Shown in pieces: positions 18,783-53,834 of a stretch of 64,000 nucleotides of DNA. The notes under the pieces were generated by a model, which saw only the letters and a list, made by a program, of their open reading frames with translations, ran no database searches and was not told the DNA's origin. Each line of letters begins with the position of its first letter. The first letter of the stretch is position 1. A program made the translations under genes and the position numbers. Source of the DNA: Phymorhynchus buccinoides (Eukaryota > Mollusca > Gastropoda > Neogastropoda > Raphitomidae); contig CM065703.1 of NCBI GenBank assembly GCA_017654935.2, forward strand, positions 37,773,278 through 37,837,277. Direction: 5' to 3'.

Positions 18783-18822
<40 letters not shown>

Positions 18823-19152: not shown

Positions 19153-19227
<75 letters not shown>
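19153..19227. repeat. poly(C) tract, 75 nt
   Basis: The longest homopolymer in the window; capable of an i-motif on this strand and a G-quadruplex on the other. Confidence 0.9.

Positions 19228-19761: not shown

Positions 19762-19793
<32 letters not shown>
19762..19793. repeat. poly(G) tract, 32 nt
   Basis: Uninterrupted G run in otherwise non-coding DNA. Confidence 0.9.

Positions 19794-21937: not shown

Positions 21938-21970
<33 letters not shown>
21938..21970. repeat. poly(C) tract, 33 nt
   Basis: Uninterrupted C run. Confidence 0.9.
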
Positions 21971-34800: not shown

Positions 34801-37800
34801 TCGAGTCGGACCCCACAAAACTCTAGTCCGTAGTCGGCATCATTGTGATCATTGGCTACCCGATTTCTCGCGGAAAAGTTCAAAGTCTCACATCATCGTA
34901 GTCTCCCGCGATCATATCCTCTAAATCGACTCATTTAAAACCCAAATCACAATCACTGTCATCAAAACAAACTCTGAAAACAGTGAAAGTAAGAGTAAAC
35001 TCGGAAGAAAAAACAAACATGGCCGCGATTTTTCGTTTCCGAAGGCGCAGTATGAAAACAAACCGCTTAAGAATACCATTTGAGAATAAGATCGCGCTGC
35101 CTCATGAAGTACAAACCACGGCCGGCAGTGCCAAAACCGCGGCCAGTGGCTACCAAAACTGCAGAAATCCACGGATCCGCAGGCCGTTCTGATGCCTGAA
35201 CGTCTTACCTTATAAGCCCAAAGGCCTCCGCAAATAGTGCACCCTCCAGGGTAGGCAAAAAATACTGATCATAGATACCGTAATTTTCAGGTTATAAGGC
35301 GATATTTTTTTCTCCAATTTCCACCTATGTGCCTAATAAACGAGGGCGCCCTATTAGTGAACAAAATCGTGAGAAGAGAGGCAACGATTGCCGTGTTCAG
35401 TACAGTTTACTGTGAGTCAGACATCGAAAGTGGTCATGAGTCGCCGATACGACGAATACTCACATTAAAATGCTTTAAAATCCCTGTTATACCGAGATAC
35501 CGTCCAAACAGATGCCATAACCCTTCATTGGATGCAAAAAGCATCATTGTAGAGCTTAAAATGCCATAATTCTAGCAGTTTTCGCGAAGAATTGTCCAAA
35601 TACAACAACAGGATGCAGCTCAAACAGAAGTTTGATTATTTGAAAGGGGAGCCAACTCTCGTTTATGACAGCAGTAATGGCGGTCGGTAAGCGTCTACAG
35701 GACACGTACAGGTTTCAAAGTTTGACCTTCTTTTGTGAGGTGCCTTATAAACGAGGGCGCCTTTTATTTTAACTTTTTCAGATTTTTCTTGAACATTGCC
35801 CTATTCGCCTTATACACAGCAGCGCCTAATGATCCCAAAAATATAGTGTACATTACATATAACAAAATGAGTATCAATGCAATCATACAAGCAACAATCT
35901 GTAATACAGAACACATAAAAACATGCATGTACACACACACACACACATATGCACGCACACACACACACGCACGCACACACACGCACACGCGCACACACGC
36001 GCACACACACACACACGTGCACACACAGAGCACTTATCAGAGACACGCAGTTGAGGATTAACCTGTGACGGGGAAGAGGAGAGTGAGTTTCAAGTAGGAC
36101 TTTAAATAATAATACCCAACATCAATCATTGTTGGTACCTCCTCCACCAACAAAATAGTTGCTTTGTCCAACAGTCTGTTAGTAAATGACAAGCACGAAA
36201 TCGCAATAGTTTCTGGCACGCGGTCTATTTTTACCACTCCAATCATGAGTCACCTCCCCTGGCTTTTGAATAATTTTAATCTGTAAACCAGAATGTTATC
36301 TCTGCACCATTTCGTAACTTTTTATATCTTTTGGAAAACATTTAAAACTATTTATCCTACTTATACTCATCAAAAGAAGCACCGCATACTCGTCGTGTCT
36401 GTTGTAGTGTCTGTATTACGTATGTTTATTATTTTGTACGCTTTAAAATGCATCATTTTAAAGAGCGGCCTCAATTTGAAGTTCAGCCTCGATTTGAAGT
36501 GCGACAATTTGTGATGCAGTACGCGAATACCCAGCTAAAGTCGGCCAGCCACAAGAGAGAGAAAGAGAGAGAGAAAGAAAGAGAGAAAGAGAGAAAGAGA
36601 GATATTTGATTGATTGAATTTTTTTTTAAAATAAACTATTAGAGATAGATGAATTCTGTTTTTTGCCTGTTAATCTGTTGTCTCTGGCCTTTCTGAAAAT
36701 ATGAATAAGTCAAAAGTGATAATTTACGACATTAGCCTGATTTTCCTGTGCTGCATCACACTTTGTCAATATGTGCGACAATTTTGGACCGACCGACAGA
36801 CCGACAGACAAAGTGAGTTATAGGTTTGTGGCTTGAGCCACAAACAATAAACCCACCCCAAAAGCATTGTATATCAGGAGAATACTAGCCTAATTTCCAA
36901 GGGTTTTCAGGAACCTTTGTGACCAAGTTGAAATTTGAAAGGGAAGCACATAACGGGAGCCCTCTTGACAAGTCTTCTTCTTCTGCTTTCCCAGGCCATA
37001 TGGACATAATGAGCGAGGCACATATCGGGTATATGTCCGTTTTTTTCAGTTCTTCCCACTGCATTCAGCCAACATATTCCAATTTCAGAGTTAGGGCTCC
37101 CAGGGACCCCCATTTGGGGGTCTATGAGGCACTAAAATTCTAAAGGACCCTCTAAAAGTATGTGCAGGGGGTCCCAGGGATGCACTAGAAAAATTCTTTT
37201 TAACATTCGCAATGCCACTGGGACCCTCTGTCCCGCCTCTAGGACCCTCTATAGCGTAAGTGAAGCAGTCCCTGGGACCCCTTGTTTTGCGGGACGATTG
37301 GGAGCCCTGAGAGTGAAAAAAAGGTTTGCAGTCAAGGGGTTAACAAGGCAGATCAAACGCACCATTTTGACGGACGAGATCTGTCGCACCAGCGTCTGCA
37401 GCAGCTGCGACTCGGGGTAAGGGAACTCCTTCAGCGCCTGACGCACCATCCGGTCCTGCATCTCTTGGAAACCGTCAGAGTCCAGACCTTTCACCAAACT
37501 GTCACACAACCAGCAAATTTCTCTTCTTTTTCTTTCCAATAATGTCTATCTGCCGTAACCAGCAATTCATTCTTCTTCTTCGATCGCTCAGACAGTTTCC
37601 TGTCAAATTTTGAGCGCAGATGCGTCATGCTGCCGTTATGCGCCTAAGAAAACTAAAAGAATAAAAAAGATCATTTACGCATTGGACTGTAGAGGGGAAG
37701 TATTGTTTCTTATTTTGATCTTGTTTTTTTTGCTCTTTTTGTTGCCTCCTTTTGCTATATTTGCTGTTTCCTTATTTGTCTATGTTGATAAAGGCGCATT

Positions 37801-40800
37801 CGCCGAAATATCCAGTGGTTTGGTTTTGTCTCTTGTGAATAAAATAACGTCACTTTACACTTGTCGTGCAGTTGTTTATTTGTTGTAACTAAGAAATAGT
37901 TAGGCCCAGCAAGTCCAACTTCGGCTGGAGGAAATTGTTTTTGAAAGTGTTTCGTGAAAAAAGGCAGGAGAATGGACCGGTCAGGCAGAAAGATAGTAGA
38001 TGACAGTAAGCAAAGGGAAAAGGCAGAGTCAAAGAGAGCGACAGATTAGAGGAACTTACAAGCACAGAACTTCCAGAAGGTGGGGGAACTATTCATACAA
38101 TAGATCCCCCGGTATCTCCATGGGGGAACCAGCAATTAATGACATGTACTGGGGTTCAAAGAAATTTATGCTGCGCATGAAAAAAAAAAAAAAGCCTAGA
38201 TAGATAAGAGGGCATGTACACCCCAGGTACACCTAGCTAGTCCAAGAACACCCAGGCCCCACATTAAAAAAAAAGAAGGAAATGTGTGGAATTTTATACG
38301 GGGAGAGCTTCAACACCTTCGAGGTGAAGGAGCTGAGCGTGGGGGACTGGACGGTTTCTGGTGGTAGGGAGTTCCAGGGTATCACTGGAATTCTGCAGCG
38401 CCTTATTAGCGAGGCATATGATGGAGGCGTAGCAGTGGCACTTCGGGGCAAACTTTGAATTGGTAAATGCTGATTACGAGTGCTTAAAAACAAACTGTTT
38501 GTGAGACACTTTCGAACAGAACTTAACCCTTTTACCGCCAGCCATTTTTCAGCAAAAATTTCCATTAAATATACCTGAAACAAAATCATCTGCAATATGG
38601 GGGATTCCTCTATAACATGCAAAGCGTAAGGCCTATCCTTACCTCCCAAAATTAAGAAAACAAGGTATTTGGATAACAGACCCTGGTTTGAGGCCTTTTC
38701 GTGACATGGGCGTTAAATCATTGTAGTGCTAAAATGCGACATTGGCGGTGAAAGGGTTAACTCATTCAAGTCGTTCCGGCCATATATGCGAAAATTTTGC
38801 GCAAACAATTTGATCTAAACCCAGGCCGCCATTACAAAAGAGACGGCACACGCCTTCTCTTTCAGTGAAAGAATCTGACTTCCAGCACCTCCGCCAAGGA
38901 GGAATCGTCGATTTGACGGTTTGATTTCTAGGAAACCAGAGAAAAGTGAGTGTTGCGATCTCTGTAAAGAGTGTTTTCATGGTGATCTTGACGTGTTTCT
39001 TGTAAAAACTCATTCGTCAGGGTCCACCTTTAACGACGAATAAACCCTTTCATCGCCGCTGTCGCTTCTTGGCACCACAATGATTTAACACCCATGTCAC
39101 TTAAAGGCATCAAATGAGGGTCTGGTATCCAGTGACCTTATGTTCATGCATGCCACAGAGGAATCCCCAATATTGCAGACAGAATATTTTCTCTGGCCAG
39201 CGGTGAAGAGGTTAAGCAGACGTACCTCTTGACAAAGGTGTCCAGGTTGTCCTTGGAACTGGTCAGCGACTTGCTGGCCAGGCGGATGATGGAGGCGTAG
39301 AAATGACACTTGAGGGCCTGCACGTCGTTGGTGTCTCTGGACTTCATGTTCTGCTCCACAATCAGGTCCAGCACCTTGCACACCTTGTAGGATTCCAGCA
39401 CCAGCTCACGGTGATCCTGGAGGTACAGGGCCACCTGTTAAAACAGCACATTATATGAATATTCCCAGCACCTTGCACACCTTGTAGGATTCCAGCACCA
39501 GCTCACGGTGATCTTGCAGGTACAGGGCCACCTGTTAAATCAGCATCAATATTAGTGTAGAGTGGCACAGTGATAATGCGTTCGCTTCGTGTCAAGTAAA
39601 CCCGAGTTCAAACCTGGGTACAGGGGATTTTTCCTCTCACTCTGCACTAGGCCTTAAGGTCTGAACGTGGAGTCTTTCGGATGAGACGATAAACTGAGGC
39701 CCTGTGTGCCCATGCACTTAGCACACGTCAATCCCAGTGGCAACGAAAAAGTTGTCATTCGGTCAAATTTTACCCACTACCCCTTTCCTTCCTCATCAGT
39801 CACAAAAATCGCATGCAAAATGGGTTTTTTTAAAAATTGGTTGGCACGCCTCTGGCTGCGATGCGCTCTCTGTGACTATAAAGAACCTAATACCTAATAT
39901 GTCCAGCACCTTGTAGGATTCTAGCACCAGCTCACGGTGATCTTGGAGGTACAGGGCCACCTGTTAAAACAGCACATTATATGAATATTCCCAGCACCTT
40001 GCACACCTTGTAGGATTCCAGCACCAGCTCACGGTGATCTTGGAGGTACAGGGCCACCTGTTAAAACAGCACATTATATGAATATTCCCAGCACCTTGCA
40101 CACCTTGTAGGATTCCAGCACCAGCTCATGGTGATCCTGGAGGTACAGGGCCACCTGTTAAAACAGCACATTATATGAATATTCCCAGCACCTTGCACAC
40201 CTTGTACGATTCCAGCACCAGATCACGGTGATCTTGTAGGTACAGGGCCACCAGTCTACACACAATATAGCATTGACTCTCTCACAGACTGAGCTATAGG
40301 TCTTACAGCACCTGACAGTTTTTTCAACTCCAGGTCACGTAGCTCTAGTAGGTACAGGGTTACCGGTCAACATGCAGTACAGCCTTGGTTCATATGCACT
40401 GAGCTATAGGTCCTACAGCACCTGGCACACTTTGTTCACGGAGCTCTAGTAGGTACAGGGCTACCTGTCAACATACAGCACAGCCTTGGTTCATATGCAC
40501 TGAGCTATAGGTCCTACAGCACCTGGCACACATTGTTCACGGAGCTCTAGTAGGTACAGGGCTACCTGTCAACATACAGCACAGCCTTGGTTCATATGCA
40601 CTGAGCTATAGGTCCTACAGCACCTGGCACACTTTGTTCATGGGGCTCTAGTAGGTACAGGGCTACCTGTCAACATACAGTACAGCCTTGGTTCATATGC
40701 ACTGAGCTATAGGTCCTACAGCACCTGGCACACTTTGTTCACGGGGCTCTAGTAGGTACAGGGCTACCTGTCAACATACAGTACAGCCTTGGTTCATATG

Positions 40801-41120
40801 CACTGAGCTATAGGTCCTACAGCACCTGGCACACTTTGTTCACGGGGCTCCAGTAGGTACAGGGCTACCTGTCAACATACAGTACAGCCTTGGTTGATAT
40901 GCACTGAGCTATAGGTCCTACAGCACCTGGAATACTTTGTTCATGTAGGTACAGGGCTACCTGTCAACATACAGCACAGCCCTGGTTCATATGCACTGAG
41001 CTATAGGTCCTACAGCACCTGGCACACATTGCGGCTATGATGGTCTTTTAGGTTACAGAACCACCCTGAAGACACGTAAAAAAGCAGAGCAGATGTGTAT
41101 ATAATAGTTTGTGTGTGTGT

Positions 41121-41151
<31 letters not shown>

Positions 41152-44100
41152 CGTGCGTGTGTGTGTGTGTGTGTATCACACTGTATCAGTGTATGTGTCT
41201 ACAAGGGAGAGAGAGACAGATAGAAAGATATCCAAATCTGCTCTGCCCACATGCGTACCTTGACGGGGTTGAGGTTGGTCATGTTGATCAGCTTCAGCAG
41301 CGGCAGCAACAGGGGAGGGGGCAGCTTGGGCTCCTTCTCAAAACCTGCAGGACAGTCATCGGCATACTGCATGAGTGCAACTCCCCCAAAATGAAAAAAA
41401 AACCTGAAAGGCAGGGGTCCAGGGGCCACCCAGGGCCCTGGCGGGGTACAGGGGCAGAGCCCCGTCGGAGGGTTCCGGGGGGGGGGGGGGGCAACGTAAG
41501 AGAGAGATAATGAGACAGACAGACAGCTACAATCATGGACAGAGACAATTTGAGTCCGATAAGCTTTGTAAAATGATTACATTGCCTTTGAAAACAATAT
41601 GGCATCACCATGCTGTTTTTAAGATTCCCCGTGATAGATTTTAGGATAGAACAACCAAGTACTGGGAACAGTGTGCATTTCACTACGCTCCTAGGGTAAC
41701 TGTCTGACTCCTAGTCCTACTCATGCAGCTTTGCTATAAAGGCTGCAAAAACACTTGGACTACCGTATTTTTCGGATCATTAGGCGCTGCTGTGTATAAG
41801 GTGAATAGGGCAATTTTCAAGAAAAATCTCAAAAACATTAAAGTAAAAGGCGCCCTCGTTTATAAGGCGATACACCTCGCAAAAGAAAGTCAAAGTTTGA
41901 AGCCCGTACACGTCCTGTAAATGCTTACCGACCGCCATTACGGCTGTCATAAACGAAAGTTGGCTCCCTTCTCAAATAATCGAACTTCCGTTTTTGCGAC
42001 TTCTGGTCGTTGTGTTTTGACTTTTCTTTGCGAAAACTGGTAGAATTATGGCATTTTAAGCTCTACAACGATGCTTTTTACATCCAATGAAGGGTTATGG
42101 CATCTGTTGGACGGTATCTCGGATGATAATAGGGATTTTGAAGCATTTTAACGTGAGTATTCGTCGTATCGGCGACTCGTGACCACTTTCGATGTTGTGA
42201 CTCACAGTAGACTGTACTGATTATGGCAATCGTTGCCTCTCTTCTGTTCACTAATAGGGCGCTTATTAGGCGCATAGGTCGAAATTAAAAAAAAAAAAAT
42301 CACCTTATAGTTATAGTCCGAAAATTACGGTAGTTACTAGATAACAGTTGCAAAAGGCTCCCAATCGTCCTGCAAGACAAGGGGTCCTAGGGACCCGTTC
42401 ATTTAGGGTATAGAGGGTCCTAGAGGAGGGATACAGGGTCCCCACTGCCTTGCAAATATTGAAATACATAACATTCCAAGTGCATGTGATGACTACCGTA
42501 GCTTGACACTTTGACAGATAGTTTTCAGAATATCTAATGCATGTGCGCGCACACACAGAGAGTAGGCAAATAATTAGTCAATGACATTCGGGGAGCTGGA
42601 GAGAATAGACGAAAAAGGTGAGAGAATCAGTTCAATGAATCGGGTCTAGAAGTAGTGAAAATAATGGCACACTGGCGTTGGCCCACAAAGGCACCCATCT
42701 GAGTTGTACTACTATTACTACTACGATTACTACTACAGTGGAACCTCCCTTATAAGACCTCCCATTATAATTTAGACTCCCTCCCACATAAGACCTACTT
42801 CTCTGAGACATTGCCCTTCTTAATTACCTCCCTTCTGAGACCTCATTTGGGATGATTTTTGAAGGTCTTATCTTTACTACTACCAGAACTACTAACCTTT
42901 AGGCACGGTGAATTTCTCCAGCTTGTGCTTGGGAAAAAAGTTGTTGATGGCCCGGACACACTGTCCCCCCCCCACAAAGGCACCCATTTGAGTTCTACTA
43001 CTACTATTACCACTACTACTACTACAACTACTACTACTACATGTACTACTACCACTACGACTACTACTACTACTACCACTATGACTACTACTACTAACCT
43101 ACTATGGCTACTACTACAACAGTACTAGTACTACTAACCTTTAGGCACAGTGAATTTCTCCAGCTCGTGTTTGGGGAAGAAGTTGTTGATGGCCCTAACA
43201 TTGGTGCTGGCCCACAAAGGCACTCATCTGAGTTGTGCTACTACTACTACTGCTACTACGATTACTACAGTGGAACCTCCCTTATAAGACCTCCCATTAT
43301 AAGACTCCCTCCCACATAAGACCTACTTCTCTGAGACATTGCCCTTCTTAATTACCTCCCTTATAAGACCTCATTTTGGATGATTTTTTAAGGTCTTATA
43401 TTTACTACTACTGCTACTAGAACTACTAACCTTTAGGCACGGTGAATTTCTCCAGCTCGTGTTTGGGGAAGAAGTTGTTGATGGCCCGGACACACTGGTG
43501 CTGGCCCACAAAGGCGCCCATCTGAGCGGCCGTGCGGTTGACGGAGTTGGTCAGGTCAGTCTTGACCCCCGCCTCCAGCACAAGGTTGGTCACCTCGACG
43601 TTCCCTGAAACAGGGACACTTGACATTGTTTTCGGTCAGAAAAAAATGTTCCATCTCAATTGTGTGTGTAAGATAAAGAGAATGTGCATGCTTGTGTGTC
43701 AACCATTTGTGCATATGTCTGTATCATGTCTTCTTCTCTCAACATTAATGCTTGTGATGGGTCTGCATGAATGAAGTGTGCGCGGATTAGATGGGAGGAG
43801 GGGAACGGGGCATGTAGTAACTGAGTTCGTTTGTTTGTGTGTGTGCGCGAGTGAGCGTGCGTGTGTATGTTTGTGCACATATGTATGTGTGTGTGTGTGT
43901 TGTTTGTGTGCGTTAATGTGTGTGTGTTTGTGTGTGGGGAGGGAAGGATGCGTTTGTGGATACCAGTGTGTATATATGCGTGTGCATGTTTGTATATCTA
44001 TGAGTATGTTTTGCGTGGGGGTGATGGTGGGAATGCGAGTGCGTCTGAGTATGCTTAATATGTATGATGTCATCTTGCATATGGAGTGAATTTTAGTTTT

Positions 44101-52105: not shown

Positions 52106-53834
52106 CAGGGTTCATAGGGGCCTTACCAGTCCTTATAAGTCTTTACCAATTGAAATCTCCAAGTAAGGCCTTACAAGAGGTTATGGTGTGAATGGCAACC
52201 TGTTGTCTTGGATTGAAGATTTTCTACATGGACGTACTCAGTATGTCAATGTTAATAATTCTTGTTCGGATAAAATACAAGTTACAAGTGGAGTTCCCCA
52301 GGGAAGTGTCCTTGGCCCTACCCTTTTTATTTATTATATAAATGACTTGCCAGAAAAGGTTGAATGTGAAGTTAAAATATTTGCAGATGATACAAAAGCC
52401 TATTCCACAGTAAATGATAATATGAAATCAAAAGAAAAAATTCAGAAGTGTATTGACTCTTTGGTTGGTTGGTCAGAGGAGTGGCTGATGAATTTTAATA
52501 GTCAAAAGTGCAAGGTGATGCATCTTGGAAAAAATAACCCAATGCATGAGTATTTTATGAATGATGGTGGTGTCAGAAGGGTTCTTGAAGCACAAATGCG
52601 GAGAAAGATCTTGGTGTTATAGTTGATCCATTGCTATCTTTTGAACCACACATCAACGATACTGTTAAAAAGGCAAACCGTACTGCTGGTCTACTAATCA
52701 GAACAATAACTAATAAATCAAAGGAAATTATGCTACCTCTTTATAAAACATTAGTACGCCCCTTATTAGAGTATGGAAATCCTGTCTGGTGTCCCTTTTT
52801 GAGAAAACATGTTGATCATTTAGAAGGTGTCCAAAGGAGATTTACGAAAACAATTATTGGAACCAGAGATATGGACTATGAGGACAGACTAAAGTATTTG
52901 GGAATACCTAGTTTGGAATACAGACGTCTAAGAGGCGATTTGATTGAGGTGTATAAAATTCTTAATAAGTTCTATGATCCTAACACAACTAAAACTTTAC
53001 TAACTTTAACTGACGAGGAGAGAACACGAGGGCATGATTTTAAATTAACAAAAAAACTAAATAACAGTCGTTCAGCTCAAAACTTTTTTACTAACAGAGT
53101 AATAACTGCATGGAACAATCTTTCTAATGAAACTGTAAATGCATCATCACTAAATAGGTTCAAAAATCTTATTGACAAAAAATTTAATACTATTATGTAC
53201 TCCACAAATTTGGAGAAATAAAAAATATTTAAAAAAAACCCACAAAAAAACACCAACCCAACCCAAAACAAATACACAATAGCCGTAGTAATTCACGGGC
53301 AAACAAAAAGAAAAAGGAAAATAAATATTTATATTTGAAAAAAATATCTAGAGGGCAAAAGGCTTCATAAGCCTACAGAGCCTAAACTGATATGATATGA
53401 TATGATAAGTGCTTACATTCACTTCAAGGTCCTTACAAGTCCTGACAGCTGCCCAAAACTGCCCTGAGCAGCAAGACCATACTCAAAATAGATCGCAGAA
53501 GCAGCACTTTTACGCTCAGCACCTACTCCACCTTACCCCCCTCCCCCACCTTCCCGTTTCAACTGACCGCTTAGCAGACGAACGATGCACCGCGAGTTGT
53601 CTAGATGAAAGAGAAATTGAACTGAAATCTCGTTCTTTATCCTGGTGTCGTTTTACGAAGAAGAAAAACGCGCATATCTGTCAGCCATAGTTTTTGTATC
53701 TGCTTAGACATTGTTCACAATGCTGGGAAAGTGTTCCTTTCAAGATCGTTGGCTAAAAGATGGAGATTATCCTTTGGCCTACAGGTCCTTACAAGGTCCT
53801 TACTTGGGGATAGCTGAAAGCACTGGGAACCCTG
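52106..53834. mobile_element. CAGGGTTC-ended element with 5-bp TSD, host of a LINE
   Basis: Left end CAGGGTTCATAGGGGCCTTA, right end ...GGGAACCCTG. TTGAA directly flanks both sides (52101-52105, 53835-53839). Subterminal 'ccttacaag' motifs are on both ends. A related end is at 62588-62760. The LINE at 52178-53407 is inserted inside. hAT-like by the CAGGG ends (inference). Confidence 0.7.
52178..53407 (+). pseudogene. 5'-truncated LINE reverse transcriptase (CR1/jockey group), frameshifted
   Basis: In frame from 52182, GYGVNGNLLSWIEDFL leads into the RT core VPQGSVLGPTLF, the FADD active site, then WLMNFNSQKCKVMHLGK. A single frameshift near 52595 moves to the frame carrying EKDLGVIVDPLLSFEPHI, RPLLEYGNPVW and RRFTKTI, ending with TAA at 53221. 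The C-terminal part matches non-LTR RT 'AAR..' tails. The 3' end has a (TGATA)n-like run at 53388-53407. No endonuclease domain, so the copy is dead. Confidence 0.85.

What the first reader, a model, noticed from the sequence alone, without database searches (positions are those of the whole stretch)
39368..41040. ANKMY2 intron 5 is built from tandem copies of the exon 6 splice boundary
Between exon 5 (41259) and exon 6 (39434), almost the whole intron consists of two tandem arrays, with 97-bp and 101-bp units. Their cores copy the last stretch of intron plus the first part of exon 6. Each unit re-creates a CAG|GTGGCC or CAG|GTAGCC acceptor on the transcribed strand. That makes about 14 extra 3'-splice-site-like junctions and pseudo-exons ahead of the real exon. 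The outer array is more diverged, suggesting two rounds of expansion. This could affect splicing or produce alternative inserts.
Basis: seen in the sequence. Interest (0 to 1): 0.8.

Follow-up and report, generated by a model that had tools for sequence, protein, structure and literature searches.

The report
Repeated splice boundary in snail intron
In a snail gene, a short piece spanning the end of an intron and the start of the next exon has been copied about a dozen times in a row, making many look-alike splice sites; this is a striking case of an ordinary repeat process, and whether the copies are ever used is unknown.

Summary
The gene is a snail ANKMY2 orthologue. Intron 5 (39435-41258) holds 12 tandem copies of the intron-5/exon-6 boundary (not about 14) before the real acceptor at 39434; 10 of 12 keep CAG|GT. 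Each copy beats its 500 shuffles. Array units fill 69% of the intron; a dispersed 344-bp element interrupts them. The 97- and 101-bp types are one lineage, linked by a chimeric and an intermediate unit. The array is in register with exon 6: the exon's first 66 nt are its last unit. Three upstream copies have exactly the real site's 31-nt intron end, so the acceptor alone cannot decide. Reading on from any copy meets a stop. Copies 40154, 40057 and 39531 also carry an internal donor that would close an in-frame 51-nt exon, but the next copy follows after only 46 nt. Most likely this is a minisatellite born by tandem duplication across a splice junction, with splicing kept at the last, exon-attached acceptor (inferred; no RNA data). 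ABCA7 in humans and an RdRp gene in potato are published precedents. Exon 4's donor end is copied in intron 4 too.

The parts
41259..41344 (-). ANKMY2 exon 5; donor AAG|GTACGC
   Evidence: gene model; 12 relatives aligned without insertion at this junction
39435..41258 (-). intron 5, 1824 bp
39226..39434 (-). real exon 6 (209 nt, phase 0); its first 66 nt are the last unit of the array
40335..41031 (-). 101-bp type array; junctions at 40960, 40868, 40767, 40666, 40565, 40464 (CAG|GTAGCC) and 40363 (CCG|GTAACC, AG lost)
   Evidence: TRF
40186..40363 (-). transitional part: intermediate exon-like piece after 40363 and chimeric copy at 40251 (101-type intron part, 97-type exon part, AG lost)
   Evidence: alignment
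39907..40252 (-). 97-bp type array, junctions 40251 (AG lost), 40154, 40057, 39960 (CAG|GTGGCC)
   Evidence: TRF
39556..39899 (+). dispersed SINE-like element inserted in the intron part of one 97-type unit
   Evidence: genome search (4875 first-look candidates, 40 scored, 51 match rows, the long matches elsewhere 89-91% identical); ends compared in six loci
39368..39545 (-). 97-bp type: copy at 39531 (CAG|GTGGCC) plus the terminal unit, which is the real boundary at 39434
   Evidence: TRF
43130..43232 (-). copy A of exon 4's 3' end with donor AAAG|GTTAG, in intron 4
   Evidence: blastn (92%)
42886..42992 (-). copy B of exon 4's 3' end with donor AAAG|GTTAG, in intron 4
   Evidence: blastn (89%)
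42668..42703 (-). fragment C of exon 4 in intron 4, without the donor
   Evidence: blastn (92% over 36 nt)

Best explanation
A segment straddling the intron-5/exon-6 border (about 52 nt of intron and 66 nt of exon) was tandemly duplicated, then amplified by slippage or unequal exchange in at least two phases. The outer copies lost 17 nt and were homogenised as 101-bp units; the inner ones became 97-bp units. A SINE-like element later landed in one inner unit. The exon body is joined only to the last copy, so that copy stayed the functional acceptor, and the upstream ones are decoys normally removed within intron 5. Recognition of the whole 209-nt exon 6 with its good donor (exon definition), not the acceptor sequence, most likely decides. 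Occasional use of an upstream copy should mostly give stop-containing transcripts and, rarely, an in-frame 17-residue insertion. Shown: anatomy, homology, order of units, stops, spacing. Inferred: duplication mechanism, constitutive use of 39434, exon definition, rarity of leakage.
For: 12 copies in register with exon 6. Chimeric and intermediate units link both types. A 97-type and a 101-type query each gave 6 matches in the 2.1-Gb genome, all in this array, the query's own place included (only 2 and 1 first-look candidates). Acceptors 40154, 40057 and 39960 share the real site's 31-nt intron end exactly and score 5.8 like it. Exon 6's own donor scores 8.7. In-frame stop reached from 12 of 12 copies. 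12 of 12 aligned relatives have no insertion at this junction. Minisatellites are common here: 31 loci in about 135 kb of readable sampled sequence, so one straddling a border is unremarkable: simulated chance 0.27-0.33 for at least one of five arrays in the gene with 97-118-bp units.
Against: No RNA data: that 39434 alone is used is inferred. The acceptor score is no guide to the real site: 3 of 127 AG sites inside intron 5 score above it (11.3, 10.5, 6.7) and four copies equal it. Two of five arrays in the gene straddle a border; chance 0.03-0.05 for 97-118-bp units, 0.19 for 290-bp units, so a local bias or relaxed constraint is not excluded. 97-type copies show 5 synonymous to 2 non-synonymous changes, more synonymous than neutral expectation (P 0.014-0.040), which hints that copies were exon for some time, were converted by the exon, or are translated.
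Confidence: 0.8

Rival explanations
1. The inner 97-bp units are working cassette exons: each can be spliced in as a 51-nt exon adding VALYLQDHRELVLESYK (or a near copy) in frame, giving ANKMY2 isoforms. Adjacent copies exclude each other because only 46 nt separate them.
For: Acceptor score 5.8 equal to the real one and internal donor AAG|GTGTGC 7.7, within the range 4.5-9.5 of the gene's nine real donors, for copies 40154, 40057 and 39531; 51 nt is 17 codons in phase 0. Synonymous excess. In potato RdRp a duplication across an intron-exon border activated a cryptic exonic donor (PMC4974935, abstract and results section).
Against: The same donor lies inside real exon 6. Copy 40251 lost its acceptor AG and 39960 has only a weaker donor, 3.9. 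The copy nearest exon 6 (39531) is 46 nt from it, probably too short an intron (general knowledge). No insertion in 12 of 12 aligned relatives, though these are other species and one database protein each.
Confidence: 0.1
2. Each CAG|GT is a ratchet point for recursive splicing, so intron 5 is removed stepwise and the mRNA is unchanged.
For: Each of the 10 intact copies juxtaposes AG and GT; CAG|GTAGCC scores 5.0 and CAG|GTGGCC 4.3 as donors, near the weakest real donor at 4.5.
Against: The GT is simply inherited from exon 6; the donors are weak, and steps of about 100 nt in a 1.8-kb intron give no obvious benefit.
Confidence: 0.03
3. The array is an assembly artefact.
For: Tandem copies are error-prone in assemblies; no reads were available.
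Against: Copies differ by substitutions and indels and include a chimeric unit, are interrupted by a dispersed element, and the stretch has no gap letters.
Confidence: 0.03

Closest known systems
ABCA7 intron 18 VNTR (human; PMC5954066, passages read)
   Same: Tandem repeat beginning at an exon's splice site, so that units repeat the site; retention of one unit and altered splicing reported
   Different: Donor side, 25-bp units, about 12 to 427 copies, polymorphism and splicing measured. Here: acceptor side, 97/101-bp units that include coding exon sequence, no RNA or population data
Potato RdRp intron gain by tandem duplication (PMC4974935, abstract and results section)
   Same: Duplication crosses an intron-exon border, carries pyrimidine tract, acceptor and exon start, and a cryptic exonic donor is available
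   Different: One duplication, spliced as a new intron in mRNA there; here 12 copies and no evidence of splicing
[quoted passage not shown] 2007; original not read)
   Same: Tandem repeat over an intron-exon junction, indicated as affecting alternative splicing
   Different: Details not seen; human

Membership tests
Tandem repeat (VNTR-type minisatellite) spanning a splice junction | head-to-tail units of more than 10 bp | tested here: met
Tandem repeat (VNTR-type minisatellite) spanning a splice junction | unit contains the splice site and overlaps the exon | tested here: met
   10 of 12 copies keep CAG|GT; 66 nt of exon 6 in the 97-type unit
Tandem repeat (VNTR-type minisatellite) spanning a splice junction | copy number varies between individuals | not testable with these tools
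   one assembly only
Intron or exon gain by tandem duplication across an intron-exon border | duplicated piece carries acceptor, exon start and a plausible donor | tested here: met
   3 of 12 copies (40154, 40057, 39531) with score 5.8 acceptor and 7.7 donor
Intron or exon gain by tandem duplication across an intron-exon border | new junctions present in mRNA | not testable with these tools
   no RNA data
Tandem duplicated (mutually exclusive) exons | whole exon duplicated with both of its splice sites | tested here: not met
   only the first 66 of 209 nt of exon 6 are copied in the array; the real donor is not
ANKMY2 | ankyrin repeats plus MYND finger and full-length similarity to ANKMY2 proteins | tested here: met
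   Pfam PF12796 and PF01753; best hit 81% over 92% to a Nucella lapillus protein, next two hits named ankyrin repeat and MYND domain-containing protein 2-like

The most novel reading that the evidence does not exclude
The intron is a growing bank of in-frame 51-nt cassette exons. Unit length sets a 46-nt gap that blocks use of neighbouring copies, so only non-adjacent copies can be included, and array copy number tunes how much ANKMY2 carries extra 17-residue segments.
Probability: 0.06. Interest if true: 0.65.

Novelty: new member of a known kind. Interest (0 to 1): 0.35.

Why it matters
It is a natural test of splice-site choice: three upstream acceptors with exactly the real site's intron end lie within about 720 nt of a presumed constitutive exon, so whatever selects the last one must lie outside the acceptor. 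It also shows how exon-overlapping minisatellites could seed new cassette exons, or feed changes back into a coding exon by conversion.

Tried and rejected
Genome-wide baseline of exon-border duplications: the Pfam kinase search of the own genome, meant to find exons to sample, did not complete (12 tries). How common such arrays are is therefore only estimated from minisatellite density and a placement simulation. A search for ANKMY2 paralogues in the own genome did not complete either (one try). The own genome is said to have no relatives held, so the age of the array across species is untested. Whole tandem exon duplication was rejected: only 66 of 209 nt of exon 6 are in the units. ARAGORN found no tRNA gene in the inserted element (it reads intact tRNA genes); 'SINE-like' rests on its dispersed copies and my reading of its head, and its family was not identified. 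Rfam gave no match at gathering score in the window. Ten paper searches were answered; three of them found no paper, and no listed title or start of abstract reports this array. The lists are capped (8,054 papers fit, 10 listed) and cover open-licence PMC papers only. PMC4329672 was opened for passages only and gave reference-list entries.

The 7 changes (5:2) are my count from the columns printed. The number of arrays in the gene (five) is my count. The readable 135 kb is my sum from the N fractions; 2 of its 20 samples were wholly withheld.

Full report
Gene and setting. The window lies on contig C24 of a 2.12-Gb genome. A 10-exon gene on the minus strand, 51381 to 31254, translates to 404 aa with nine GT-AG introns. 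Its 3' end is unresolved: the frame either stops three residues after my model's end or splices on. Pfam finds ankyrin repeats and a MYND finger. The best of 398 database hits (120 listed) is a Nucella lapillus protein (81% identity over 92%), then Babylonia areolata and Littorina saxatilis, so the organism is a gastropod, probably a neogastropod (inferred); the species was not identified. In an alignment with 12 chosen relatives none has an insertion at the exon 5/6 junction; one (P0060) has two extra residues further into the segment that exon 6 encodes here.

What is in intron 5. Read on the gene's strand, the order is exon 5, a (TG)n stretch, seven 101-type copies (junctions 40960, 40868, 40767, 40666, 40565, 40464, 40363), copy 40251, copies 40154, 40057, 39960, a dispersed element, copy 39531, then real exon 6 at 39434. 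The junctions were found with a pattern, so a copy whose GT had mutated would be missed, but the spacing (92-112 nt, apart from the element) leaves no room for one. All 12 copies outscore the best of 500 dinucleotide shuffles of the same stretch. CAG|GT is kept in 10 of 12. Array units are 69% of the 1824-bp intron and the dispersed element 19%.

How the two types relate. The alignment shows that copy 40251 has a 101-type intron part but a 97-type exon part, and that the exon-like piece at 40363 is intermediate in length. Exon parts of both types end at the same GTGCTG, apart from copy 39960, which has a small deletion there. The simplest reading is one original duplication of about 118 bp (52 intron + 66 exon), a 17-nt loss in the outer lineage and a shorter intron part in the inner one. 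This is inference from the alignment. In the genome, a 97-type query and a 101-type query gave six matches each, their own places included, and all lie in this array.

The dispersed element. Positions 39556-39899 match copies on many contigs: 4875 first-look candidates, 40 scored, 51 match rows including this one, the long matches elsewhere 89-91% identical. In six loci inspected (this one and five others) 6 of 6 start at the same point and 3 of 6 reach the same 3' tail end. It sits in the intron part of one 97-type unit, so it came after that unit was formed.

Splicing anatomy. With a generic consensus score, the real acceptor of exon 6 is 5.8, the four intact 97-type copies are also 5.8, the six intact 101-type copies 4.6-4.8, and the two that lost AG are below -5. 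Copies 40154, 40057 and 39960 have the same 31-nt intron end as the real site, letter for letter. The score does not single out the real site: of 127 AG sites inside the intron, three others score higher (11.3, 10.5, 6.7). The nine real donors score 4.5-9.5. Inside the exon part, AAG|GTGTGC scores 7.7 and would close a 51-nt, 17-codon, phase-0 exon; copies 40154, 40057 and 39531 have both ends. From a 97-type copy to the next is a 46-nt intron, except across the dispersed element, where it is 378 nt. From general knowledge of splicing 46 nt is probably too short, so neighbours should exclude each other. Read without that donor, 12 of 12 copies reach an in-frame stop.

Substitutions. Among the 97-type exon parts and exon 6 itself there are 5 synonymous and 2 non-synonymous changes against a neutral expectation of 25-32% synonymous, P = 0.014-0.040 by the assumed transition bias. 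With 7 changes this is weak. It fits copies derived from, or converted by, a constrained exon at different times, and it does not exclude translation.

Is it surprising in this genome? Twenty 10-kb samples of the same contig, about 135 kb readable after withheld stretches, hold 31 minisatellite loci of 30-300 bp period, about one per 4.4 kb. The window gives 11 rows in 64 kb, three of them this array. A 97-118-bp unit dropped at random in the gene straddles one of 18 exon borders with at least 15 nt on either side 6-8% of the time, so at least one of five arrays does so with chance 0.27-0.33. Two of five do, because exon 4's donor end is also copied in intron 4; for two or more the chance is 0.03-0.05 with 97-118-bp units and 0.19 with 290-bp units. 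So the array is explicable as ordinary turnover, with a mild hint of local excess. Selection against such arrays was not modelled.

Comparison. The human ABCA7 VNTR begins at the exon 18 donor, repeats it, and changes splicing, with retention of one unit reported (PMC5954066, passages). [quoted passage not shown] A potato RdRp gene gained an intron by one tandem duplication across an intron-exon border that used a cryptic exonic donor (PMC4974935, abstract and results). The snail array is an acceptor-side, many-copy member of this kind. It differs from classical tandem exon duplication, since only 66 of 209 nt are copied.

Verdict. The splicing outcome is open and could be settled with RNA-seq of the species.

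Noticed in passing
window 43232-43130, 42992-42886, 42703-42668: Copies of exon 4's 3' end in intron 4 (92%, 89%, and a 36-nt fragment at 92%); the first two repeat the donor AAAG|GTTAG. Copy A has a stop in frame and copy B lost the upstream AG. The donor-side mirror of the finding in the same gene.
   Followed up: partly
window 38373-38449: A 74% identical copy of 77 nt from the middle of exon 6 in intron 6, same strand; its reading KCHCYASIICLANKALQNSSDTLE looks like a relic of an older exon duplication.
   Followed up: partly
window 52167-53221: Two overlapping + strand open frames that read like reverse transcriptase of a non-LTR retrotransposon broken by a frameshift (recognised by eye).
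   Followed up: no
window 35276-35843 and 41766-42332: Inverted pair of about 570 bp at 85% identity inside the gene, probably two copies of a mobile element.
   Followed up: no
window 19153-19227: Uninterrupted run of 75 C, with other G or C runs at 488-534, 18784-18822, 19762-19793 and 21938-21970.
   Followed up: no
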